64,000 nucleotides of DNA from NCBI RefSeq assembly GCF_023516715.1, contig NZ_JAMGSI010000001.1, forward strand, positions 1 to 64,000, read 5' to 3'. The DNA is from Akkermansia massiliensis. GTDB taxonomy: Bacteria; Verrucomicrobiota; Verrucomicrobiia; Verrucomicrobiales; Akkermansiaceae. Below, piece after piece: positions 14,426-27,759 of this stretch. A program made the position numbers and the translations under genes. Numbering within the stretch: the first letter of the stretch is position 1; every line of letters starts with the position of its first letter. The notes beneath the pieces are model-generated. The model did not search any database, was not told where the DNA came from, and saw only the letters and a program-made list of their open reading frames with translations.

Positions 14426-14773
14426 ATGAACATTATCAACAAAATCGAGCAAGAGCAACTCAAGGCGGATGTGACCCCATTTAACGTAGGTGATACCATC
14501 AAGGTTCACACTCGTGTTATTGAAGGCGGCAAGGAACGTATCCAGATTTTCCAGGGCATCGTGATCGCCAAGCGCGGTTCCGGCATCAATGAAGCTTTCA
14601 CGGTCCGCAAGATTTCCTACGGTGAAGGCGTGGAGCGCGTGTTCCCCCTGCACACCCCCCGCATCGCCAAGATTGAAGTCGTGAACCGAGGCAAAGTCCG
14701 CCGTGCCAAGCTTCACTACCTGCGCGGCCGTATCGGCAAGGACGCCATGATCGTGAAGTCCGCCAACCGGTAA
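14426..14773 (+). CDS. rplS: 50S ribosomal protein L19
   Basis: A 115-residue ribosomal protein at the 30S-50S interface. [60 protein letters not shown] is highly typical, followed by the basic [20 protein letters not shown] end. Here it stands alone, without rpsP, rimM or trmD next to it, and is followed by its own strong terminator. Confidence 0.97.
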
Positions 14774-14798
14774 TCGGAAAAATTGCTATTTTTGCTGG

Positions 14799-14831
14799 CC
14801 CGGCCCGCCGTGAGGCGAGGCCGGGTTTTTT
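14799..14831 (+). terminator. Rho-independent terminator of rplS
   Basis: CCCGGCC (14799-14805) pairs with GGCCGGG (14819-14825); the intervening bases add an inner CGCC/GGCG stem. A run of T follows directly. It begins 26 bases after the L19 stop. Confidence 0.88.
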
Positions 14832-15064
14832 ATGCCCGGAAGGTTTTATTCCACCCCGGAGGAAGAAGGGGCCGGACGGGAAAGGAAGGCGTGAAAAAAT
14901 TTTCGTGAACCCCCCTGTGAGGGCAACACGGTTTTTCCCGGTGAAAGTTCCGGAAAGGGGGAGAGAGGCTGAAAGAAAGCCGGCAAGAAAAAGGAACGGG
15001 ATGGAACAAGTCCTCCGGCTTTTCCGTTCCTTCCGGCGGGGCTTTGCCGGGGGGAGGGAGCTAA

Positions 15065-15841
15065 TCAGGAAGGCAGGCGGTTGGCCAGCCTCTTTTGCAG
15101 GAAATAGAAGTGGAGCATCATCAGCACGGAACTTGCCAGGCTCACCAGGAAGGCCGTTCCGTTGTACATGATGACGGGGCGCACCATGCCGTTCAGCAGG
15201 GCTTCCAGCTCCCGGTCCAGCGCAAGCACGTTTTCCGGGCTTTCTTCCGCCCATGCCCGGAGCGTCTCCGAGAAATGGAACAGGGGCTGGAACAGCGTAT
15301 ACAGGAAGATGAGCAGGGAACCCGGCACGCTGACGGCCCAGGCCAGCCATATCCAGCCTTTTCCGCGTGAAGGGCCGGGGAAGGAGAGGGCCTTGTTGAC
15401 GTCCAGCATGGCTTGAAGGGGCATCCAGATATTGCCCACGGGGAGGAAGAAGGAAAGGACGCAGAGCAGGGGAGAGGCGCGCATGGCTCCCTTCTTCACC
15501 GTTTCCGCATTCTGCGCCAGCCGGTAAACCAGCATCAGCCAGCAGACCACCAGCCCGGCCATGGACAGGTAAAACAGGCCGCCGTCCAGCGTAAACGGAG
15601 CGGCGGAGCCTGCCTCCGCCCTGGCAAGGGAGAGGGAAAGGGAGGCGCGGTCCCCTTCCTGGAGTTCCTTCATGGTTTGAGCCAGCGTTTCCGAGATGGC
15701 TTGCTGAATCAGGGGAAGATCGTGGAAAAGCAGATAGAAGGTGCCCCCGGCCAGCGTCAGGGCAAACAGGCACAGGAGGAACAAGAGGACGCCGAGCTTC
15801 CGGAGGGGCGGAATTCCGGCTGAAAACGGTTCCGCAGGCAT
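15065..15841 (-). CDS. DUF4328-like membrane protein
   Basis: A 258-residue protein with about four membrane helices. The middle contains VCWLMLVYRLAQNAETV followed by SFFLPVGNIWMPLQAMLDVNKA, resembling the DUF4328 pattern in which a charged loop precedes a membrane segment and a WxP-type motif. Its ATG overlaps the stop of the upstream pseudokinase gene by one base (TAATG), so translation is probably coupled. No function is known. The protein family call is tentative. Confidence 0.6.
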   Translation of the reverse strand: MPAEPFSAGIPPLRKLGVLLFLLCLFALTLAGGTFYLLFHDLPLIQQAISETLAQTMKELQEGDRASLSLSLARAEAGSAAPFTLDGGLFYLSMAGLVVCWLMLVYRLAQNAETVKKGAMRASPLLCVLSFFLPVGNIWMPLQAMLDVNKALSFPGPSRGKGWIWLAWAVSVPGSLLIFLYTLFQPLFHFSETLRAWAEESPENVLALDRELEALLNGMVRPVIMYNGTAFLVSLASSVLMMLHFYFLQKRLANRLPS

Positions 15842-17858: not shown

Positions 17859-18299
17859 TTACCTGCTGGGCAAAACCCGGAAGGCTGAACAAACCAGTCC
17901 GGAGCAAGCCGCAATCAGCAGGAAAAATTTCAGTTGCTTCAGGCGCCTGAGAGACATTCCTGTCCGATTGGCCATGGCCATGTAAAAATCATGTTCATCC
18001 CAATTCTTGCGGATGCGGCAAAGCAGGTGGATAACTGTGGCGGTTGTTAAAGCCACCATGTACAGGGTGGCTAGGAAAAGAGCCGTTTCCGGACATCCGT
18101 TTGACAGGAAAACGGCGGATGCGAGCAACAGGCATAACAGAATGAGGAATAGGGAGCCGGCAAACTCAGCAAGGAGTTTGTATTTGTTAACGATTTCCTG
18201 AACCTGTTTCTTACCGGAAAAATGTTCTTCCTTCCTTGTCCTGAACATCATCCAGCCGGTCAGCAGGGACGTCAGGAGCAGCCATAGGATGTCATGCAT
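17859..18299 (-). CDS. Small membrane protein, function unknown
   Basis: A 146-residue protein with four hydrophobic segments (about residues 2-18, 42-68, 72-92 and 124-142) and charged loops, including a basic RTRKEEHFSGKKQ near the N terminus. I recognise no family. GC content is lower than in the flanking metabolic genes, and it borders the RHS island. Confidence 0.6.
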   Translation of the reverse strand: MHDILWLLLTSLLTGWMMFRTRKEEHFSGKKQVQEIVNKYKLLAEFAGSLFLILLCLLLASAVFLSNGCPETALFLATLYMVALTTATVIHLLCRIRKNWDEHDFYMAMANRTGMSLRRLKQLKFFLLIAACSGLVCSAFRVLPSR

Positions 18300-19004
18300 G
18301 GGGCGGAACGGGGGAATTTCGGGAAATAAGCGCGGGCATTACGGCCTTTTCTGCATGATAGGGAACCCGATCGTCCCAGTACATCGTAAATCTGGGTGTG
18401 AAAGATAAAGCTTCAATTTTTGCAGCCTCAAGTTAATCTTATCATTGAACGCCTCAGAAACTCTTCGGTGGCCGGGGTGGCGTCAAGGGACCTTGAAGGA
18501 GCAGGGTTCGAACTTCCTTTGATAGTTTTCGCGTTTCAGAACATGCGGGGTATGCCGGATGGATGAAGAGGAGAAGCTTATTTACTCGCTTCCTGTGCAG
18601 AGCCTTTTCCTCCCCGAATTCCGCGTCAAATTGGACTAATTCCTCGCGGAGGCGAGAGAGAAGACGCGCAGGGTTTTTCCTGAAATTTCAATGAGGAAGC
18701 GTTCGTTCTCAGAGTTGGAGTAGATGAGGGGGAGAGGCGGGAGCGTTCCCAGGCCTCCGCGACTGCGGATGCCTGATCCCGAGGGAGGGGGCAGGTCATG
18801 CAGGGTATGTAAGGAAGATGTTATGGAGAAATTGGATGTCTCCAGGCACTGGAGCCGTTGATCTCTTTCTTGATGAGTATTTTTTGCCTATCACGAAGAA
18901 TCATACATTTTAACGTTGTCGATAATTCTTGTATAAACTTGCCTATTGCCTGATCAAAAACACCAAATACGATGTACGATTCATAGATATCGTTTCAACT
19001 CTGT
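18300..19004. other. Decayed intergenic region beside the RHS island
   Basis: About 700 bases with no intact gene. A minus-strand open frame running from about 18694 down to a stop near 18443 encodes charged, protein-like sequence (RLREELVQFDAEFGEEKAL) but has a stop in front of it and no start I trust; it may be the remnant of an older gene. Sequence becomes AT-rich at 18890-18990. GGGTTCGAACTTCC near 18506 recalls a tRNA T-loop but its stem does not pair. Confidence 0.5.
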
Positions 19005-19435
19005 CAGTTACTTTCTTCATGTAACGGCGCCCTCGGTAGTCGTAGCCGCATTCCACCACCGTACTGCCGTCCTGGCTGATGAAGCTCACCGCACGGTTAG
19101 CTTCATTGTATACTGTGGTCCAGATGCCCGTTGAAGTTCTAATCAGCGTCTGGTTGGCCGAAGCGTTATAGTCGGGAACAAAGGGTTGATCCAGATCCAG
19201 AGTGGAGGGTGATGCTAGTGTACTGTGCTTGAGTTCGTTGACCGCGTAGATGAGTTCTTCGGCCAGTTTCTACACCGTCTTGCGGTTGACGATGTTGTCT
19301 AGCTGAGGCATAGGGCGTCGTGCCTAGAGAAGCTCCGGTGAGTTCGTTCCTGCTGTTGTAGCTGAAGCTGTCGCTATGGACTACTTCGTTTTTCCGCTAC
19401 TGGGTGCGGGTAGTCGGATGCCCCAGCGCAATCAT
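19005..19435 (-). pseudogene. Decayed RHS-repeat gene fragment
   Basis: This stretch aligns by eye over its whole length with 20845-21265 of the adjacent RHS gene, at roughly three-quarters identity (for example CTTCATGTAACGGCGCC against CTTCATGTAGCGGCGTC, and the following GTAGTCGTAGCCGCATTCCACCACCGT run). Translated on the minus strand it recovers pieces such as DSFSYN-RNELTG and CGYDYRGRRYMKKVT, with stops and frame changes. It lacks the core and C-terminal tip. It lies immediately beyond the candidate immunity gene, where displaced RHS fragments are found in other bacteria. Confidence 0.88.
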
Positions 19436-19910
19436 AAGTTGGAGTATTTATTTTCTCAGGAAAATCCAGTACTGACATTTGTAAATACAGCTTATTGACA
19501 TATTTCGCCTGTTCATTAAGCATATTTATTAAATTCTGAATATCTGTTTTTTCTAATTTTATATGCTTCTCCATATTTAATGCAGCAATTGCATTTCTTT
19601 GATCTTCTATCCAAGTCTCTATTTGTTTCTTTCTTTGTGAATCATTTTTCTGACTATACTTGTTTTTAATTTCTAATTTCTGAAATTCGATGATATCGTT
19701 TGGAGTAACATCAAATTTAGAGAAATTATATTTTCCTGGAACGAGATTGCGAAGGGATCCTGCTTGGTACATAAACCATTCTGTATAAATAAGATCAAAA
19801 TGCGCCTTATCACTTAATTCACTAAAAATGTTTTTCTCAACATTTTGTTGTTTAATGTCAGAACAGTGCGTACATAACAATATAAAAGCTACATAAAATA
19901 TTTTATTCAT
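19374..19910 (-). CDS. Candidate RHS immunity protein with altered C terminus
   Basis: A 178-residue, AT-rich gene that starts 9 bases after the RHS stop codon. The N terminus (MNKIFYVAFILLCTHCSD) is signal-peptide-like with a cysteine, but the lipobox is not canonical. The rest is charged and helical with no family I recognise. Position, base composition and size fit an immunity protein for the RHS tip; this is inference. The last 19 or so residues (from DCAGASDYPHP) are translated out of frame from the adjoining RHS fragment, so the native C terminus appears to be lost or replaced. Confidence 0.65.
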   Translation of the reverse strand: MNKIFYVAFILLCTHCSDIKQQNVEKNIFSELSDKAHFDLIYTEWFMYQAGSLRNLVPGKYNFSKFDVTPNDIIEFQKLEIKNKYSQKNDSQRKKQIETWIEDQRNAIAALNMEKHIKLEKTDIQNLINMLNEQAKYVNKLYLQMSVLDFPEKINTPTYDCAGASDYPHPVAEKRSSP

Positions 19911-19919
19911 AGTTATTAA

Positions 19920-20372
19920 TTATTTTTTATTAGGAATTATAAGAATCCATTCTTTCGGATTATTCGGATTATCTACTTGATATAATAATGTATTACTTAA
20001 CAACAATACATTATGGCATTCCCATTTTCCCTTATTACAGGAACACCATTTATAGGCTTGAACGCTTACTCCTAATGCACTCCGAGCTCTTCCTACTCCT
20101 CTCAAAGGTTGGACTTTTCTATTGAAAGTATCACCTGTTTGACTATAACATGTTTTGTTATAGCAATCAAACCAAGTATAAACTACATAGCAACAATTTT
20201 CATTACATGTACCATTATGTTCGCATTTGGATGTGAACATAGGACTTTCAACTGATGCCTTAACATCAATTCCTTTTGTTCCTGCATCTTTAATAACTGG
20301 CCTTTCCTGCGATCTTTCACATCCTTTACAACATTTCGGACACGGATCGCCTGTTTTTGTGAATCCCTTTTT
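19920..20372 (-). other. Cys-rich variable C-terminal tip of the RHS protein
   Basis: The 150 codons following the conserved KYDGLGL junction. Cysteines are clustered as CPKCCKGC near the start, CEHNGTCNENCC in the middle and CSCNKGKWEC near the end, suggesting metal binding or disulfide bonds. AT content rises sharply relative to the RHS body. No nuclease, deaminase or ADP-ribosyltransferase motif is evident to me. Confidence 0.7.
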
Positions 20373-21428
20373 TAACCCTAAACCGTCATATTTGTTTATT
20401 ACAACATTTTCTATAAACCCGTACAAATTCCATCCGCCTTCTTCAGCGATGGGGTCACGATTGATCCACCTGCCGTCTGCGGGATTGTAATAACGATAGT
20501 TGTAATAGACCAGGGCGAGTTCTACATCGTTCATCTCGCTGGACCACTGCACCGGCTGGACGAGGTCCCCCGTGGAAACAACCTGTCCGTATGGCGAGTA
20601 GTCATAAGTTGCCGCAATAGCTCCCTCTCCAGCGAACACCTCCGTGACGTTCTTGTTAAAGTCAACTCCATAGCAGTAAAGGGCATTTTCCTGCACCAGG
20701 GCCAGGGGACGCGTTGCCACCGGTTCCAGTGGATCCCACAGCAGTGTCCGAAGCACGTTCCGGTTGTCCAGCATGTCCAACGCCGCTAGTTGCAGGTAGC
20801 CACGGTACAGGTAGCGTTCATGGCTGACGACCGTTCCGTTGACGGTGACCTTCTTCATGTAGCGGCGTCCCTGGTAGTCGTAGCCGCATTCCACCACCGT
20901 ACTGCCGCCCTGGCTGGTGAAGCTCACCGCGCGGTTGGCCGCGTTGTAGACTACTGTCCAAATGCCCGTCGAGGTTTTGATGAGGGTCTGGTTGCCCGAG
21001 GCGTCGTACGTCGGCACAAAAGGCGCCTCCGCTTTTTCTTCGATGCTTGTGTACTGGTTGAGGTTGTTGGCCGCGTAGGAAAGTTCCTCGGCCAGTTCCC
21101 GCGCCGTCTTGCGGTTGCCGATGTTGTCGTAGCTGTAACCGTAGGGGGCTGTTCCCAGAGTAGCCCCGGTGAGTTCGTTTCTGCCGTTGTAGCTGAAGCT
21201 GTCAGTACGAGTTGCTTCGGTTCCCCGCTGCTGGGTGCGGGTGACCGGGCGTCCCAATGCGTCGTAGCTCTGGCTGCGGGAGACCAGCGCGGTTCCCCCC
21301 AGACGGCAGCTTATGGCCACTGCCAGGTCACGGTGTTCTTCATAGGCAAGTTCCCGGACGATGCCGTTGGGCATCGCGAGGCTGGAGGGCAGGCTGCTTC
21401 CCGCCAGGTAGCCGTAGGCGAAGGTTGG
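19920..21428 (-). CDS. RHS protein, C-terminal part with core and Cys-rich tip
   Basis: Continues the reading frame of the upstream RHS gene after a single TAA codon: the 18 codons before the first ATG (21374) encode PTFAYGYLAGSSLPSSLA, a normal RHS continuation. YD-repeat sequence is followed by the RHS-associated core (YDYSPYGQVV, YYNYRYYNPADGRWINRDPIAEEGGWNLYGF). After KYDGLGL a distinct tip of about 150 residues begins, with 13 cysteines, no similarity I recognise, and much lower GC. By analogy with polymorphic toxins the tip is the candidate effector. Re-initiation at 21374 is possible but unproven. Confidence 0.85.
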   Translation of the reverse strand, partial: PTFAYGYLAGSSLPSSLAMPNGIVRELAYEEHRDLAVAISCRLGGTALVSRSQSYDALGRPVTRTQQRGTEATRTDSFSYNGRNELTGATLGTAPYGYSYDNIGNRKTARELAEELSYAANNLNQYTSIEEKAEAPFVPTYDASGNQTLIKTSTGIWTVVYNAANRAVSFTSQGGSTVVECGYDYQGRRYMKKVTVNGTVVSHERYLYRGYLQLAALDMLDNRNVLRTLLWDPLEPVATRPLALVQENALYCYGVDFNKNVTEVFAGEGAIAATYDYSPYGQVVSTGDLVQPVQWSSEMNDVELALVYYNYRYYNPADGRWINRDPIAEEGGWNLYGFIENVVINKYDGLGLKKGFTKTGDPCPKCCKGCERSQERPVIKDAGTKGIDVKASVESPMFTSKCEHNGTCNENCCYVVYTWFDCYNKTCYSQTGDTFNRKVQPLRGVGRARSALGVSVQAYKWCSCNKGKWECHNVLLLSNTLLYQVDNPNNPKEWILIIPNKK

Positions 21429-24400
21429 TTATTCTCCTACGTGCACGATTCCGGCGCCGGCAAGCCTCCCGTTGGCTTCATAGCCCTGGCTTGCTTCCTG
21501 GAGGACGTCGGTTCCCTGTTTCAGGGTATAGCCGGAGGACCGGCCGTAGGCATCGTAGTTTTCCTGGAGCTGGCAGGAGGCGCCTCCTATGGTGATGCTA
21601 TCGGTGTCCGGTTCGTTGTAGGGAGTGTAAGTGATGGTGCGAGAGCCTGAGGCGTCCGTCACCTGGGTCAGCTGGTTGAGGCAGTTGTAGGCGTACTGGA
21701 TGCCGGGCGTGGAGTCGCTGTAGGAGACGGAGGTGTTGACCCCTTTCTTCAGATTGTAGCCCCAGGTGGTGACCACCCCGCGCGCGTCTGTGAGCGTGGA
21801 TCTGAGGTTCAGGGCATTGTAGGCGGTGTCCTCATGCGTTCCGTCCGCGTAGGTTTTACGCGCCAACAGCCCCGTGGCTTCATCATAGCTCCAGGTGGTG
21901 ACGTCTCCGTCCGTGCGTCCCGTGGGGTCGGTGGTGATGTCGCCCGCGTCCTCCCGGAAGGTGGTAAGGCTGACCATTCTGTCGGCTTCGTCGTAGCCGA
22001 AGAGCAGGGGCTGGGCGCCCGTTCCCCATTGCGCCGTATTGCGGCCCCGGAGATCGTAGTTGTAGCATGTCGTTTTCCCGAGGGCGTTGGTGACGGCGGA
22101 AGGCTGGTCAAACCAGGGATCGTAGGCGGTAGAAGCCGTGTTGCCCGCCGCGTCGGTAACGGAAACAGTGCGCCCGGCGATGTCGGTACGTGTCGTAATG
22201 GTGTTGCCCCGTCCGTCCGTGTTAGTGTAGATGATGCCGGTTTCCGCATAGGCTCGGGTCTGCGTGGAAGTAATGCCCGCGTGGTCCGTCTGCGTGGTAG
22301 TAAAGTCGTCGATGACCGTCGCGGTGGCCGTGACATTGGAAGTGGGGATGCTGCTTTTTTGCGTCCGCAGGGCGCCTGTTCCGTATTCGCTCCACTGTGT
22401 GGATATATTTCCTCTGGGACCGATGAAGACGGTTTTGCTTTCCAGCGTGGACGAGAGGGAGGAAACCAGCGTCTTCTGCGTTTCGCCATAGGTAGTCCCT
22501 TGGCCGTTGTTCCTAGTCGCCGTGACGACGCGGTAGACGCCGTCCTGCGCCTGTTCCACGCCATAGCTCCACGTGGTGATGCGCGAGTTGGACACGGTGG
22601 CCGGATCGGCAAGCTTCCAGGTTTCCTTGACCTTATTGCCGAAGTCGTCGTATTCCCACAGGGTCGGCGCCATCGTCGTAGCTGCGGTTTCCGCATCTGT
22701 CTGTTCCTTGGTCAGCTGTCCCTTGGCGTTATAGGTGTTCCTCGTGTAAATGACTCCCCCGATGGTGTTGGGCCGGCCCGTGCGCAGAATTTCCCCGGCA
22801 CCGTTGGCGACGCTGCGCTGCAGTTCGGTTTCCGTTTCCCCGGAGACGGCTTTCGTGAAGGTCCGAACGCCGTCGGCAACCAAGTCGAGGGAATAGATGA
22901 TATGCCGCTGTCCCGTGCCGGATTCTTCCAGGACCGTTCCGTCCGGCGCGTTGCGCGTGACGAACGTGGCTCCGGAGGGAGTGGTTTGCGTCGTCGTCAG
23001 ACCGTCTTCGCTGTAGGCGTAGGTGGTGACTCGTCCCAGGACGTCCGTAGAGGAAGTTATCCTCCCCAGCAAGTCGTACTCCGAGCTTTCGCTGGTCGTC
23101 ATGGCCCCCGTATCCCGGCGCGTAGAGAGGATGCGCCCCGCCGCATCCAGGGTGTAGGTGGTGATGGTTTCCGGCGTGATGACGGTTTCCCCGTCCATTA
23201 CGGCGGAACGCGTGGTTTCCACCAGTTGGCGCGCCGTGTCGTAGGCATAGTCCATTCTTACACCATTTTCATCAATGTCCCACAACAGGCGCCCGTCGCA
23301 CATCAGCTCGCGCTCCGTTATTCGGCCATTGCCCGCCGTCCGCTTCACCCACCTGTTCTGCGTGTCAAATTCATAGGAGGCGCTGTCCGTGAGCGCCCAT
23401 TCCCCGCCGGTGAGCAGGGCGTAGCTTTCTTCCCTGACGCGCTGCCCTTCCGCCGTGATCCAGGTCGTGGTGCGCGTGCTCTGTCCCGGCACGGTTTCCC
23501 CGTTGACGCGCGTTTCCAACGTTTCCGTGTAGAGGGCGCCGTGCTCCGTCGTTGCCGCGTAGTCGTGCCAGGTTTGCACGCCGGTGAGGTCCCGGGTCAT
23601 CCGGGTGCGTCCGCGGGCATAGACGTCGGGCGCGCCGGCCAGCCATTGTTCCGTGGCCGTCAGGCGCGTGCCCGTTACTCCCAGTCCGGTGACCCGCTTT
23701 TCCGTCCTTTTGACGTGATTGGCCGTCGTGTACTTGTAGGCAATGGTGGTCAGCGTCTTGACGTGTCCTTCCAGCGGAAGCAGGTCTACCGTTTCCGTGG
23801 CGGGTTCGTCGTTGAAGTCGGCTTCTCCCGAATAGGCATAGGTGTAGCGCGTGATGCGCCTGCCGCTTTCCGCCCACGGTTCGTCGCGGGAGAGCAGGCG
23901 TCCGTAGAGGTCATACGCGTAATGAATTTGGCTGCCGTCCGGGGCAGTTTCCGTCTTGAGCCGTCCGCACTGGTCGTAGGCGTATTGCGTGGTCTGGGCT
24001 TCCTGGCTTTGATAGCCTTCCACTTGAGTGAGCAGCAGATCGCCTACGTCCGTCGTTTGATATATGGAGCAGGTGCGCTCTGCCACGATACCTCCTTTGG
24101 AGATTTCCGTCACCAGCTGCCAGACCGAGTCTTCCGGTTCCAGCTCCGTGCGCGTGCGGATGGTCGTGACGGCGTCTTCCCCCGTGCCCTGCCGCATGTT
24201 CCACGCCAGGCCGTCGTTCCACCAGGTGACGGCGTAGGGCTGCCTAGCCGGCGCCTGTTCCGTGACGGTGAAGTGGCCGTCCGCGGAAAGGGAAAGGTTG
24301 AATGTTTTAAAGGGTGTCCCGGTGACCGTATAAAATCCCTGTTCGTCCGTTCCGGTGATTTGCCCAGGCGTGTAGAGCGCGATGATGTAGCCCGTGGAGG

Positions 24401-25601
24401 TGACGTTTTCCACGTTGAGCAGGCCGTCCCACAGGTTCCAGATTTGCCTCAGCGAGCCGTCTTCGGCATGCTTGACGTCCAGGTAGGATGACGCGTTGGA
24501 GATGACCTGCTTGTCGGTGGTGGTGTAGGAGAGGAGCATTCCTGTTTCCGCCGAGAAGAGGTATTGGCTGCCGTCTTCCACGATCCAGCGGAGGCAGGAT
24601 TGTCCTTCCACCGTGTCCAGCGTTGCCCGTCCTCCGCCCGACGTGTCCACGCCAACGGGCAGCACGGACCCGTTCATATAGCAGCGCATGGCAATCACCC
24701 GGTCTCCCTGCACCAGATCAAAACGCACTCCGGGTACAATTCCCCCTTCGGGCACGTCCAGGCGGCTGTTCAACGGATGGTTGTAGGCCAGTGAGGAGGG
24801 GCTTTCCAGGCCGGAGACAGTTTCCTCAGCCCTCAGTTCCACAAGGCCCGCAGGAATCCCTCCCAGTCCCCGGAACATTCCGAAGTTGCAGGACCAGTAC
24901 ATCAGGGTGGCCGTGCTTTCCGCACTCACACTGCACCCTGCGGAGGAGTAGTTTCCCAGCGTGCTATTCCCCACCGCGGAGCCCGACCGGGCCAGCGACG
25001 GGGAAGGCGGCGTTCCGCCGCTGTTATCACACGTGTCTCCCTCGCACGGGCACTTCTCGGGCTCCTCCTTGCCTCCCGGCTCCGTCGGCACCACGTCGAT
25101 GCTATAGTTGCAGATGGAGACGTTGTCTTTTTCAGGCTTGTAGTCGATGTTGGTCTGGTTGACTTCCCAAATGTAGGAGCCGGAGGGCAGCTGCGCCCCG
25201 CCGGTCCCCGTGTGGTATTTATGGCCGCCCTGCTTGCCTGCCGTCTGCGAGTCTTTCTTCAGGTCCACCTGCGCCACCACGCTGCCGCTGGAGTCCTTCA
25301 CTTCCAGGCTGCCCCAGTCGTCCACCCCCAGGAAGAGCGAACAGGTGCCGTAGAGCTTTTTACCGTCCGCTCCTTCCGGAATGGTAAAGTAACCGTGAGC
25401 ACTGTGTCCATCCGCCGACGTACTGGGCGGTCCCACGGTAATTTCATCGTGTTCGTGGATTTCCTCGAACGGTAGCGGATCGGGCTCCGGAGAGGCGCGC
25501 ATGCCACGCGGCATGGGTTTGGCCGTAGAGCCAAAGTACCATTTGCGGTAAGCGGGGATGGAAGAAGGGGTGCCGGCAGAAGAAGTAGTTGGAGTATTCA
25601 T
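21429..25601 (-). CDS. RHS/YD-repeat protein, N-terminal part ending at an in-frame ochre codon
   Basis: A 1,390-residue protein of the RHS shell family. The N-terminal 250 residues contain an IPEGADGKKLYG-type domain, then EKCPCEGDTCDNSGGTPPSPSLARS, a Cys-containing linker. From about residue 540 on there are many YD repeats (for example YAYDQCGRLKTETAPDGSQIHYAYDLYGRLLSRDEP). Translation stops at TAA (21429-21431) just after GAGIVHVGE. The frame continues open for another 502 codons, so a CAA-to-TAA change in one 1,893-codon gene is the simplest explanation. No signal peptide is obvious at the N terminus. Confidence 0.9.
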   Translation of the reverse strand: MNTPTTSSAGTPSSIPAYRKWYFGSTAKPMPRGMRASPEPDPLPFEEIHEHDEITVGPPSTSADGHSAHGYFTIPEGADGKKLYGTCSLFLGVDDWGSLEVKDSSGSVVAQVDLKKDSQTAGKQGGHKYHTGTGGAQLPSGSYIWEVNQTNIDYKPEKDNVSICNYSIDVVPTEPGGKEEPEKCPCEGDTCDNSGGTPPSPSLARSGSAVGNSTLGNYSSAGCSVSAESTATLMYWSCNFGMFRGLGGIPAGLVELRAEETVSGLESPSSLAYNHPLNSRLDVPEGGIVPGVRFDLVQGDRVIAMRCYMNGSVLPVGVDTSGGGRATLDTVEGQSCLRWIVEDGSQYLFSAETGMLLSYTTTDKQVISNASSYLDVKHAEDGSLRQIWNLWDGLLNVENVTSTGYIIALYTPGQITGTDEQGFYTVTGTPFKTFNLSLSADGHFTVTEQAPARQPYAVTWWNDGLAWNMRQGTGEDAVTTIRTRTELEPEDSVWQLVTEISKGGIVAERTCSIYQTTDVGDLLLTQVEGYQSQEAQTTQYAYDQCGRLKTETAPDGSQIHYAYDLYGRLLSRDEPWAESGRRITRYTYAYSGEADFNDEPATETVDLLPLEGHVKTLTTIAYKYTTANHVKRTEKRVTGLGVTGTRLTATEQWLAGAPDVYARGRTRMTRDLTGVQTWHDYAATTEHGALYTETLETRVNGETVPGQSTRTTTWITAEGQRVREESYALLTGGEWALTDSASYEFDTQNRWVKRTAGNGRITERELMCDGRLLWDIDENGVRMDYAYDTARQLVETTRSAVMDGETVITPETITTYTLDAAGRILSTRRDTGAMTTSESSEYDLLGRITSSTDVLGRVTTYAYSEDGLTTTQTTPSGATFVTRNAPDGTVLEESGTGQRHIIYSLDLVADGVRTFTKAVSGETETELQRSVANGAGEILRTGRPNTIGGVIYTRNTYNAKGQLTKEQTDAETAATTMAPTLWEYDDFGNKVKETWKLADPATVSNSRITTWSYGVEQAQDGVYRVVTATRNNGQGTTYGETQKTLVSSLSSTLESKTVFIGPRGNISTQWSEYGTGALRTQKSSIPTSNVTATATVIDDFTTTQTDHAGITSTQTRAYAETGIIYTNTDGRGNTITTRTDIAGRTVSVTDAAGNTASTAYDPWFDQPSAVTNALGKTTCYNYDLRGRNTAQWGTGAQPLLFGYDEADRMVSLTTFREDAGDITTDPTGRTDGDVTTWSYDEATGLLARKTYADGTHEDTAYNALNLRSTLTDARGVVTTWGYNLKKGVNTSVSYSDSTPGIQYAYNCLNQLTQVTDASGSRTITYTPYNEPDTDSITIGGASCQLQENYDAYGRSSGYTLKQGTDVLQEASQGYEANGRLAGAGIVHVGE

Positions 25602-25992: not shown

Positions 25993-27729
25993 TTACGGCC
26001 TTTTCAGGATGATGGGCGGGGCGGGGTTGGACTGCCATACCGGGGTGGCGGCCCGTGCGTCCGCTTCCTCCAGCGCCTGGCGGCCCTTGACCTTGGCCAG
26101 GTGCTCCCGGAGGATGCGCCGCAGTTCCACGGCGGCGGCGGGGTCGTCCTGCACGCTGTGCCCGGACGGGACGATTTTTTCACTGGCGCTCCAGTCCAGA
26201 TGGGAGGAGCGGTACTTGACCACGCCGTCGGAGGAGTGGGGCGTATCGTTCCTGCCCCTGTCCCCGATGATGGAATGGACGGGAACGTTCGGGTCCCCGC
26301 GCAGCTCCGACATGTACTTGACCAGGGAGGAGTTCGGGGAAAGCTGGCGGATGCTGGTGAGTTCGTCCTTCAGCTGCAGGGGGTTGAGCAGGAACATGCC
26401 GCGGCTGAGGGTGGCGATGCGGGTGACTTCCTCCAGCATGTCCGCCGGGAGGTCGATCAGGCGCTGGCCCAGCCGCCCTATCCAGTTGTCCGCAAAGGTG
26501 GAGCCGCGGTGCGGGGTGGCCATGTACACGATGCGCGTGACGCCCCTGGCGGGGGAGAAGATAAAATTGTTCTGGAGCTGTTCAAGCATGGGCTCGTCAC
26601 AGTGCAGGGGTTCCAGCCCGGTTTTCCAGTTCTCCAGCGTCATGTCTGCAAAGGTTTCCGGGGGAAGTTCAAAGAGGCCCTTCATCAGCGTCCAGGGCTT
26701 GGTGGAGTTGTTGAAGCGGGTGATGAGGCCGCCCATGGAGTGCCCCACCATGACGATGTTGTTCATTTCCCTGGAGTCGCCGCGGGGATTGTATTCCTGC
26801 ATGAGTTCCTCCAGGGCCTTCCGCTGCCTGCTGGCCGGAATGGTCCAGGCCAGGCCGGACGGATAGCCGAAGAACCAGAACTGGTAGTTTTCCCGGATGA
26901 CGGGATCCACCAGAAGGCGGTTGGTCAGGTTGGCAAAGGTGGCGGGGCCGGACATCAGGCCGTGGGTGAAGACCACGGGAATTTTCCGGGGGTCATAGGG
27001 TTCGGAAAAATAAAGCCCCATCGTATTGATGGCCTTTTTGGGACGGAACGCGCCCAGCAGTTCCGTTCCGTCCGCGTCGGAAAGCTTCCAGAAAAGGGCG
27101 ATGGGAACGGAGAAGTTGGCCGCCAGGGGCTGACGCACCTTGTTTTTGCCGATGAAGACGTGCTCATTCATCAGACGGGGAATGGTGCGGAGGGTGGGCT
27201 TCCCGTCCACCATGCGGTCAAAGTCCAGGATGGCCGTCAGCGTGTGCACGTTCCCGTTGTCCTTGAGCACGTTGGCATGGGGCCGGGAGACGCCCTGGGG
27301 CGCCAGGCCCGCCAGGGGAATGCCCATTCCCTCCACGGTTACGCTTTCCCGCAGGCGGAAGGTGGGGTCCACTTCGTCGGACATGAAGATGGCCTCGTAG
27401 AACCAGGGGTTGCTGTCCTTGGCGTAAGGAGATTTTTCAATGATGAAGGGGAGGCTTTGACGCTTCTTCTCATTCATGCCGCCCTCCCGTTTGGCCTCTT
27501 TCAGGTGGGAGGCCAGCTTCCGGATGCATGCGTTGTATTTTTTTCTGGCTTCCGGCCATTCCCTGCTGCGGTGGGGAGAGGAGAGGATGAGCCATGCGGC
27601 CTGGGCTTCCCGGATGGCTACGGCGTCATCCTGGTAATGGGCGTACGCCCTTTCCTGCTGCTGGTGGTGCAGGGAACAGCCGGAAAGGCCCATGAGAAGG
27701 CCTAGAAGAAGGGCGGAAGCCGTTTTCAT
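25993..27729 (-). CDS. Lipase/esterase-like lipoprotein (alpha/beta hydrolase)
   Basis: About 578 residues. A lipoprotein signal peptide (KTASALLLGLLMGLSGC) places it at the membrane after cleavage before Cys. The central VFTHGLMSGPATFANL and NIVMVGHSMGGLITR give the oxyanion and nucleophile-Ser (GHSMGG) elements of an alpha/beta hydrolase. IVYMATPHRGS after it is typical of lipase-like hydrolases with an AxPHxG segment. SGHSVQDDPAAAVELRRIL near the end offers a possible catalytic His. Start at 27729 is preferred over an ATG three codons upstream. The natural substrate is unknown. Confidence 0.82.
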   Translation of the reverse strand: MKTASALLLGLLMGLSGCSLHHQQQERAYAHYQDDAVAIREAQAAWLILSSPHRSREWPEARKKYNACIRKLASHLKEAKREGGMNEKKRQSLPFIIEKSPYAKDSNPWFYEAIFMSDEVDPTFRLRESVTVEGMGIPLAGLAPQGVSRPHANVLKDNGNVHTLTAILDFDRMVDGKPTLRTIPRLMNEHVFIGKNKVRQPLAANFSVPIALFWKLSDADGTELLGAFRPKKAINTMGLYFSEPYDPRKIPVVFTHGLMSGPATFANLTNRLLVDPVIRENYQFWFFGYPSGLAWTIPASRQRKALEELMQEYNPRGDSREMNNIVMVGHSMGGLITRFNNSTKPWTLMKGLFELPPETFADMTLENWKTGLEPLHCDEPMLEQLQNNFIFSPARGVTRIVYMATPHRGSTFADNWIGRLGQRLIDLPADMLEEVTRIATLSRGMFLLNPLQLKDELTSIRQLSPNSSLVKYMSELRGDPNVPVHSIIGDRGRNDTPHSSDGVVKYRSSHLDWSASEKIVPSGHSVQDDPAAAVELRRILREHLAKVKGRQALEEADARAATPVWQSNPAPPIILKRP

Positions 27730-27759
27730 GATGAACAAGGAGAGAAGGGGGCGGAGAGG

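What the first reader, a model, noticed from the sequence alone, without database searches (positions are those of the whole stretch)
19374..20372. Cys-rich RHS tip and linked candidate immunity gene
After the conserved KYDGLGL junction the RHS protein switches to a 150-residue AT-rich tip with 13 cysteines that I cannot assign to any toxin family. Nine bases after its stop begins an AT-rich 178-residue protein with a signal-like N terminus. This is the layout of a polymorphic toxin with its cognate immunity protein, but with an unfamiliar, probably metal- or disulfide-bearing effector.
Basis: partly seen in the sequence, partly recalled or inferred. Interest (0 to 1): 0.7.

Follow-up and report, generated by a model that had tools for sequence, protein, structure and literature searches.

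The report
Cysteine-rich RHS toxin tip, lipoprotein immunity candidate
A bacterium carries a swappable, cysteine-packed protein tip next to a likely protective lipoprotein gene, which looks like a new toxin-and-antidote pair of a well-known kind whose toxin probably works in the rival cell's outer compartment.

Summary
On the minus strand a 150-residue, 35% GC tip with 13 Cys (19923-20372) follows the RHS core, and nine bases later a 178-codon ORF starts (19374-19910). Neither has a credible family match. All 6 tip copies found (window, two same-genus genomes, one other genus, two MAG contigs) have a small ORF directly downstream. All 13 Cys are kept at about 43% identity (p about 7e-6). Both genes show purifying selection. 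The neighbour looks like a lipoprotein (Cys16), and most other ORFs after long RHS tips in this genome have hydrophobic N-termini. Best reading: an RHS toxin/immunity cassette, new in sequence but ordinary in architecture, with a disulfide-stabilised beta-rich toxin acting in the periplasm. The RHS frame carries an in-frame TAA at 21429-21431, so the tip is cut off from its carrier here; in two relatives it is an orphan cassette. The 178-aa length is also inflated: four relatives have 149 aa, and the extra tail runs into a decayed RHS remnant. Two sheath families (T6SS, phage-type) were not found, so delivery is unknown. Toxicity and protection are untested, and the structure models were too weak to name a fold or show an interface.

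The parts
19923..20372 (-). Cys-rich RHS C-terminal tip, 150 aa, 13 Cys; candidate toxin
   Evidence: starts right after the TIGR03696 core match that ends at 20373
19374..19910 (-). neighbour ORF, 178 codons; lipoprotein-like N-terminus with Cys at residue 16; candidate immunity gene. Conserved part is 19464-19910 (149 aa)
   Evidence: four close relatives are 149 aa and end with a stop here
19377..19463 (-). 29-residue tail of the neighbour ORF absent from the four close relatives; the last part reads into the decayed RHS copy
20373..20600 (-). RHS-associated core domain (TIGR03696) in front of the tip
19920..21374 (-). 484-aa ORF: last part of the RHS core plus the tip, downstream of the in-frame stop
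21429..25601 (-). 1390-aa RHS ORF, same frame as the tip ORF, ended by TAA at 21429-21431
   Evidence: two relatives have an uninterrupted frame here
19002..19425 (-). decayed second copy of the RHS core (three blocks, 77-82% DNA identity to 20840-21256), frames broken
17859..18299 (-). 146-aa membrane-type protein, 44% identical to the ORF that follows the same kind of RHS remnant in G053 and L010; possibly an older immunity gene

Best explanation
The pair is a polymorphic-toxin cassette. The 150-residue tip is the toxic C-terminal domain of an RHS protein, and the downstream lipoprotein is its cognate immunity protein. Inferred mechanism: the tip is made reduced in the cytoplasm, sheltered in the RHS shell, and reaches the periplasm of a neighbouring cell by an unknown route. 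There its 13 invariant cysteines oxidise into a disulfide-locked, beta-rich domain that harms the envelope, more likely by binding or perturbing a periplasmic or membrane target than by acid- or His-based hydrolysis. The lipoprotein sits on the periplasmic face of the producer's and its kin's membrane and blocks the tip there. Shown here: layout, pairing, Cys conservation, purifying selection, the tip on different carriers. Inferred: toxicity, immunity, compartment, disulfides. In this genome the carrier frame is interrupted, so the cassette is probably now a reserve or orphan module giving immunity rather than attack.
For: The neighbour lies 9, 3, 3, 3, 3 and -1 nt from the tip stop in 6 of 6 copies: window, G015, G053, L010, L011, G120. 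The G120 tip, from another genus, is 43% identical and keeps 13 of 13 Cys (p = 7e-6). The G120 neighbour looks like a diverged homologue: 0 of 2000 shuffles score as high against the window neighbour, 0 of 2000 against L002 and 9 of 2000 against L010; with it as query the four family members rank directly after itself among 240 ORFs (E 0.0059, 0.033, 0.59 and 3; next decoy 4.4). dN/dS: tip 0.128/0.582, neighbour 0.210/1.179, window against L010. The main RHS genes of G015 and G053 (open frames of 1904 and 1970 codons) bear other tips, and this tip starts about 0.8 and 1.0 kb beyond their stops. Among 13 RHS tips of at least 140 aa in this genome (of 18 core hits; 5 with short or no tips dropped), 11 next ORFs have a hydrophobic N-terminus, against 14 of 46 window ORFs (Fisher p = 9e-4). 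Without the window's own pair, which is in both sets, it is 10 of 12 against 13 of 45 (p = 0.002). Only D137 among acids, and no His, is invariant in six rows. DsbA-dependent activation of periplasmic effectors is known (PMC5792426, one results section read).
Against: No toxicity data. In none of the 6 copies is the tip seen on an uninterrupted full-length RHS: the window is broken by TAA, four copies (G015, G053, L011, G120) follow short core pieces, and L010 is cut by the contig end. The neighbour's profile does not find the G120 neighbour at E 0.001 (E 0.059 with a three-row profile), and hhalign gives it 2.1% probability. BLASTP gives E 3e-4 for the window but 0.094 for L010. The lipobox is imperfect (LLCTHC), and no signal predictor was run. 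The hydrophobicity threshold was set after looking: at 1.8 the counts are 11 of 13 against 17 of 46 (p 0.004), at 2.2 they are 8 of 13 against 11 of 46 (p 0.018), at 2.4 they are 8 of 13 against 7 of 46 (p 0.002). The background holds some ORFs antisense to real genes, and starts are unverified. An odd number of Cys leaves one unpaired.
Confidence: 0.66

Rival explanations
1. Polymorphic toxin/immunity cassette, but the Cys bind metal (zinc or Fe-S): a metal-centred toxin domain that acts in the target cytoplasm.
For: CxxCCxxC at the tip's start and CxC near its end resemble metal-ligand spacing (sequence; the resemblance is recalled, not tested). RHS proteins are made in the reducing cytoplasm (general knowledge).
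Against: The neighbour has an exported, lipoprotein-like N-terminus, and 11 of 13 ORFs after long RHS tips in this genome have a hydrophobic one. No His and one acid is invariant. No tip hit in Pfam or NCBIfam.
Confidence: 0.15
2. The tip is not a toxin: it is a non-toxic disulfide-rich binding or adhesion domain at the end of a surface RHS protein, and the lipoprotein is its partner or anchor.
For: The weak beta-sandwich model resembles FnIII and cytokine-receptor folds (VIA Z up to 8.3, Foldseek best E 0.058). No conserved catalytic set is evident.
Against: Tip+neighbour cassettes on and off RHS carriers, orphan cassettes and decayed leftovers are typical of toxin/immunity loci (PMC3150448 abstract). 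Model confidence is low (mean pLDDT 57.8), and a Z near 8 is common for unrelated models (note).
Confidence: 0.12
3. Decaying debris: a broken RHS gene and hitch-hiking AT-rich ORFs with no present function in this genome.
For: In-frame TAA at 21429-21431, decayed RHS copy at 19002-19425, neighbour ORF running into the remnant.
Against: Tip and neighbour frames are intact and under purifying selection between lineages, and all 13 Cys are kept. Debris fits the carrier, not the cassette.
Confidence: 0.07

Closest known systems
Orphan rhs-CT/rhsI and cdiA-CT/cdiI modules (Poole et al. 2011, PMC3150448; abstract and outline seen)
   Same: Variable C-terminal tip followed by a small ORF; orphan copies beside a full-length carrier; the same module on or off the main gene in different genomes.
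   Different: This tip and neighbour have no credible hit in the libraries searched; the neighbour looks exported; no activity has been tested; the T6SS sheath family was not found in this genome.
DsbA-activated periplasmic T6SS effectors Ssp2/Ssp4 of Serratia (PMC5792426; abstract and one results section read)
   Same: Model for the proposed mechanism: target-cell DsbA and the effector's cysteines are needed for toxicity in the periplasm.
   Different: Those have 3 Cys each; no sequence relation was tested; here the disulfides are inferred. In the same paper the cytoplasmic Rhs2 did not need target DsbA.
Tse5-CT, pore-forming RHS tip of Pseudomonas aeruginosa (PMC9637101; abstract and outline)
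   Same: An RHS-borne non-enzymatic toxin that acts on the membrane and is neutralised by a cognate immunity protein.
   Different: Tse5-CT is a transmembrane toxin delivered by a T6SS; this tip is predicted beta-rich, is Cys-rich, shows no long hydrophobic segment by eye, and has no known carrier machine.
Arrays of displaced effector-immunity modules in Vibrio cholerae (PMC5361080; abstract and start of the introduction)
   Same: Successive replacement leaves older immunity genes downstream: compare the RHS remnant and the 146-aa membrane-type protein after this pair.
   Different: Those are T6SS clusters; here RHS-core remnants separate the modules.
Bacterial Teneurin-like RHS/YD proteins (PMC13018210; passages seen)
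   Same: RHS/YD shell with toxin and adjacent immunity gene, and no obvious delivery machinery.
   Different: Gram-negative members are described there with predicted signal/lipoprotein starts (some without); the RHS N-termini of the window, G015 and G053 show none by eye. No sequence comparison was made.

Membership tests
RHS polymorphic toxin | RHS/YD repeats and RHS-associated core directly before the tip | tested here: met
   TIGR03696 E 7.8e-18 over its cut-off in the tip ORF; RHS_repeat over its cut-off; core match ends at the tip boundary
RHS polymorphic toxin | tip varies between otherwise similar RHS proteins | tested here: met
   last core stretch 80-83% identical in G015 and G053 but with other tips; 13 long tips in this genome, only one pair of them similar at E 1e-3
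RHS polymorphic toxin | uninterrupted carrier joined to the tip | tested here: not met
   in-frame TAA at 21429-21431 in this genome; so an orphan-type module here, not a working full-length effector
RHS-CT/RhsI orphan cassette | tip fragment plus adjacent small ORF, kept together in different settings | tested here: met
   6 of 6 tip copies with a small ORF starting -1 to 9 nt from the tip stop
RHS-CT/RhsI orphan cassette | tip inhibits growth and neighbour blocks it specifically | not testable with these tools
   needs expression tests
T6SS-delivered Rhs effector | host genome has a T6SS sheath (VipB/TssC) | tested here: not met
   PF05943: 0 matches in the own genome (100% complete by its record), control E. 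coli rings; PF04984: 0 matches, three controls ring
Bacterial lipoprotein | short charged start, hydrophobic stretch, Cys near residue 16 | tested here: inconclusive
   present by eye in the window, four close relatives and G120, but the lipobox is imperfect; no signal-peptide predictor was available
FnIII-like beta-sandwich | confident fold match | tested here: inconclusive
   mean pLDDT 57.8, pTM 0.54; Foldseek E 0.058 at best; VIA Z 8.3 with rmsd 2.4 over 94 residues, a level the tool calls common for models without a clear match

The most novel reading that the evidence does not exclude
A new class of RHS warheads in this family of bacteria: disulfide-knotted, non-enzymatic beta-domains that become active only when oxidised in the periplasm of the target, blocked by lipoprotein or membrane immunity proteins, and delivered by RHS proteins without any contractile injection machine.
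Probability: 0.2. Interest if true: 0.75.

Novelty: new member of a known kind. Interest (0 to 1): 0.42.

Why it matters
It adds an unassigned toxin/immunity pair and points to a wider pattern. This genome has 18 RHS-core hits, 9 of them in open frames of at least 1900 codons. Its 13 long tips are richer in Cys than window ORFs, and 11 of the 13 next ORFs carry hydrophobic N-termini, yet no contractile sheath was found by two families. If the reading is true, these bacteria fight in the periplasm with oxidation-dependent warheads delivered by an unknown route, which can be tested in laboratory strains.

Tried and rejected
Family searches gave nothing usable. For the neighbour, weak Pfam, NCBIfam and PHROGs hits (E 0.048 or worse) and PADLOC RT_UG23 at E 0.0027 with 14.3 bits over 42 residues were treated as chance. 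The tip had no hit in any of the four libraries or in the PDB by sequence.

Wider tip searches: viral contigs, 54 candidate stretches, none confirmed; plasmids and phages, none; genome contigs, 19 candidate stretches, 2 confirmed. The order sample gave 5 of 189 genomes, of which G137 (E 7e-4, 27% identity, two stops, antisense to a long ORF) was dropped as chance. The phylum sample gave 4 of 387, the genus of G120 1 of 18. These samples overlap.

Structure: the fused tip+neighbour model failed (mean pLDDT 37.8), so it says nothing on an interface. The tip alone reached 57.8. The FnIII-like resemblance is not used as evidence of function. Each model had three alignment rows only, because loci from the genome search may not be folded. 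A 'viral' structure search was not run, and the neighbour was not folded alone.

First alignment A1 held only part of the G120 tip. The statement on acids comes from the fuller alignment A5, where one acid, D137, is invariant.

Of six window flanking proteins searched in the 18-kb stretches of G015, G053, G120 and the 14-kb stretch of G077, only the 146-aa membrane-type protein was found, in G053, so synteny of the RHS locus is not shown. The two MAG contigs L010 and L011 bear names of other phyla; their RHS-core matches to the window are mostly 73-83% identical, so they are probably mis-binned, which was not proved.

Literature: listings for Akkermansia with RHS terms, Verrucomicrobia with polymorphic toxin, RHS with lipoprotein and cysteine and RHS with cysteine-rich showed no title or abstract start that appears to describe this pair; the papers were not read through. 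In the polymorphic-toxin catalogue PMC3482391 (passages seen; 300,000 of 357,715 characters held) 'cysteine-rich', 'disulfide' and 'Akkermansia' occur 0 times. The genus name Akkermansia is my recall from gene content; no call names the organism.

Full report
What is there. On the minus strand, a large RHS gene ends in an RHS-associated core (TIGR03696, E 7.8e-18; match 20373-20600). The next 150 residues (19923-20372) hold 13 Cys. Nine bases after the TAA stop begins a 178-codon ORF (19374-19910) whose first 16 residues look like a lipoprotein signal ending in Cys16. Tip and neighbour have 34.7% and 31.3% GC, against 58% in the adjacent core. At the Cys rate of the window's ORFs, 13 or more in 150 has p about 4e-8.

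The RHS frame has an in-frame TAA at 21429-21431: a 1390-aa ORF ends there and the same frame goes on to the tip. The corresponding RHS genes of two same-genus relatives are open through this point (frames of 1904 and 1970 codons). Intact copies thus exist elsewhere; in this genome the tip is cut off from its carrier unless the stop is an assembly error. The neighbour's length is also inflated. In four close relatives it is 149 aa. The extra 29 codons run through a spacer and end on a decayed RHS-core copy at 19002-19425, which repeats 20840-21256 in three blocks at 77-82% identity with broken frames.

Relatives. The tip was found in G015 and G053 (same genus), in G120 (another genus of the family, 43% identical), and in two short MAG contigs, L010 and L011. 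Profile searches found it in 4 of 260 genomes of the family, the window's own included, and in the same 4 of a 387-genome phylum sample. It was not found in viral contigs, plasmids or phages. The neighbour profile found 4 of 260: window, G015, G053, and a decayed copy in G077, on the opposite strand about 2.1 kb beyond the end of an RHS ORF.

Pairing. In 6 of 6 tip copies a small ORF starts -1 to 9 nt from the tip stop. In five it is plainly the same protein. In G120 (160 aa) it is much diverged. It scores above all of 2000 shuffles against the window neighbour and against L002, and is matched by 9 of 2000 against L010. As a query against 240 ORFs of the window and four loci it ranks the four family members next after itself (E 0.0059, 0.033, 0.59, 3; next ORF 4.4). 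Against this, hhalign gives 2.1% and the neighbour profile misses it at E 0.001. Pairwise BLASTP gives E 3e-4 for the window neighbour and 0.094 for L010.

Constraint. All 13 Cys are identical between window and G120, where 50 of 115 aligned positions are identical (p = 7e-6), while in that alignment 0 of 5 Asp, 0 of 2 His and 2 of 6 Glu are. With the fuller G120 tip one acid, D137, is invariant in all six rows. dN and dS between window and L010 are 0.128 and 0.582 for the tip and 0.210 and 1.179 for the neighbour. Both genes have been kept as proteins; the Cys are the constrained part and no usual catalytic set stands out.

Cassette behaviour. In G015 and G053 the full-length RHS gene bears other tips, and the Cys-rich tip with its neighbour starts about 0.8 and 1.0 kb beyond that gene's stop, behind a short piece of core. 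In G120 it is one of five short core pieces, each with its own tip and a following ORF (read by eye). In the window, G053 and L010 the order tip, neighbour, RHS remnant, 146-148-aa membrane-type protein is kept; in G015 that last protein was not found. This is the known behaviour of orphan rhs-CT/rhsI modules (PMC3150448, abstract) and of displaced effector-immunity arrays (PMC5361080, abstract and start of the introduction).

Compartment. The genome has 18 RHS-core hits, 9 in open frames of at least 1900 codons. I took the 13 with tips of at least 140 residues and dropped 5 with short or no tips. Two of the 13 tips are alike (56%); no other pair is similar at E 1e-3. Of the 13 next ORFs, 11 have a hydrophobic N-terminal stretch at a threshold of 2.0, against 14 of 46 non-overlapping window ORFs (Fisher p 9e-4). 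Without the window's own pair, which is in both sets, it is 10 of 12 against 13 of 45 (p 0.002). The threshold was chosen after seeing the values: at 1.8 it is 11 of 13 against 17 of 46 (p 0.004), at 2.2 it is 8 of 13 against 11 of 46 (p 0.018), at 2.4 it is 8 of 13 against 7 of 46 (p 0.002). Starts are unverified, three of the next ORFs run off the fetched stretch, one lies 148 nt away, and some background ORFs are antisense to real genes. The 13 tips are also richer in Cys (median 3.5%) than the 46 ORFs (1.25%; p 9e-4). This suggests that RHS tips here work in the periplasm or at the membrane, where disulfides form.

Mechanism proposed. The tip is carried reduced, reaches the target periplasm, is oxidised, and harms the envelope; the lipoprotein blocks it at the producer's membrane. 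Target-cell DsbA is needed for two Serratia periplasmic effectors with 3 Cys each, and not for a cytoplasmic Rhs effector (PMC5792426, section read). Delivery is unknown: no match to the VipB/TssC family or the phage-sheath family, with controls ringing. Other injection or secretion machines were not tested.

Structure. The best Foldseek E is 0.058, and VIA Z is at most 8.3 against FnIII-type domains, a level common for models without a clear match. I take only 'beta-rich' from this.

Verdict. A real, rare, unassigned tip/neighbour pair, very likely an RHS toxin/immunity cassette: a new family in a well-known architecture. Its Cys-based, periplasmic mode is a reasonable inference, not a result. 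It is probably silent or orphaned in this genome.

Noticed in passing
window 21429-21431: In-frame TAA splits the RHS gene; the same frame is open in two relatives.
   Followed up: partly
window 17859-18299: 146-aa membrane-type protein, 44% identical to an ORF at the same place after the RHS remnant in G053 and L010; perhaps an immunity gene of a lost tip.
   Followed up: partly
own genome, 18 TIGR03696 hits: Nine long RHS open frames and 13 long tips, often Cys-rich, but no match to the VipB or phage-sheath families; how these proteins leave the cell is unclear.
   Followed up: partly
L025/L043 (G000:C1:879418 region): The RHS tip contains HEYIH, an HExxH-like motif (recalled meaning), and its neighbour has a signal-like N-terminus; perhaps a metallopeptidase tip.
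   Followed up: no
L015 (G120:C1:1664000-1682000): Array of five short RHS-core ends with different tips, each followed by a small ORF, beside an ORF (14489-15505) that looks like an integrase by eye.
   Followed up: no
L010, L011: Short contigs titled Rikenellaceae and Candidatus Stoquefichus carry RHS cores mostly 73-83% identical to the window's; probably mis-binned.
   Followed up: no
window 25993-27738: ORF that looks by eye like a lipase-type alpha/beta hydrolase with a lipoprotein-like start, next to the 5' end of the RHS gene.
   Followed up: no
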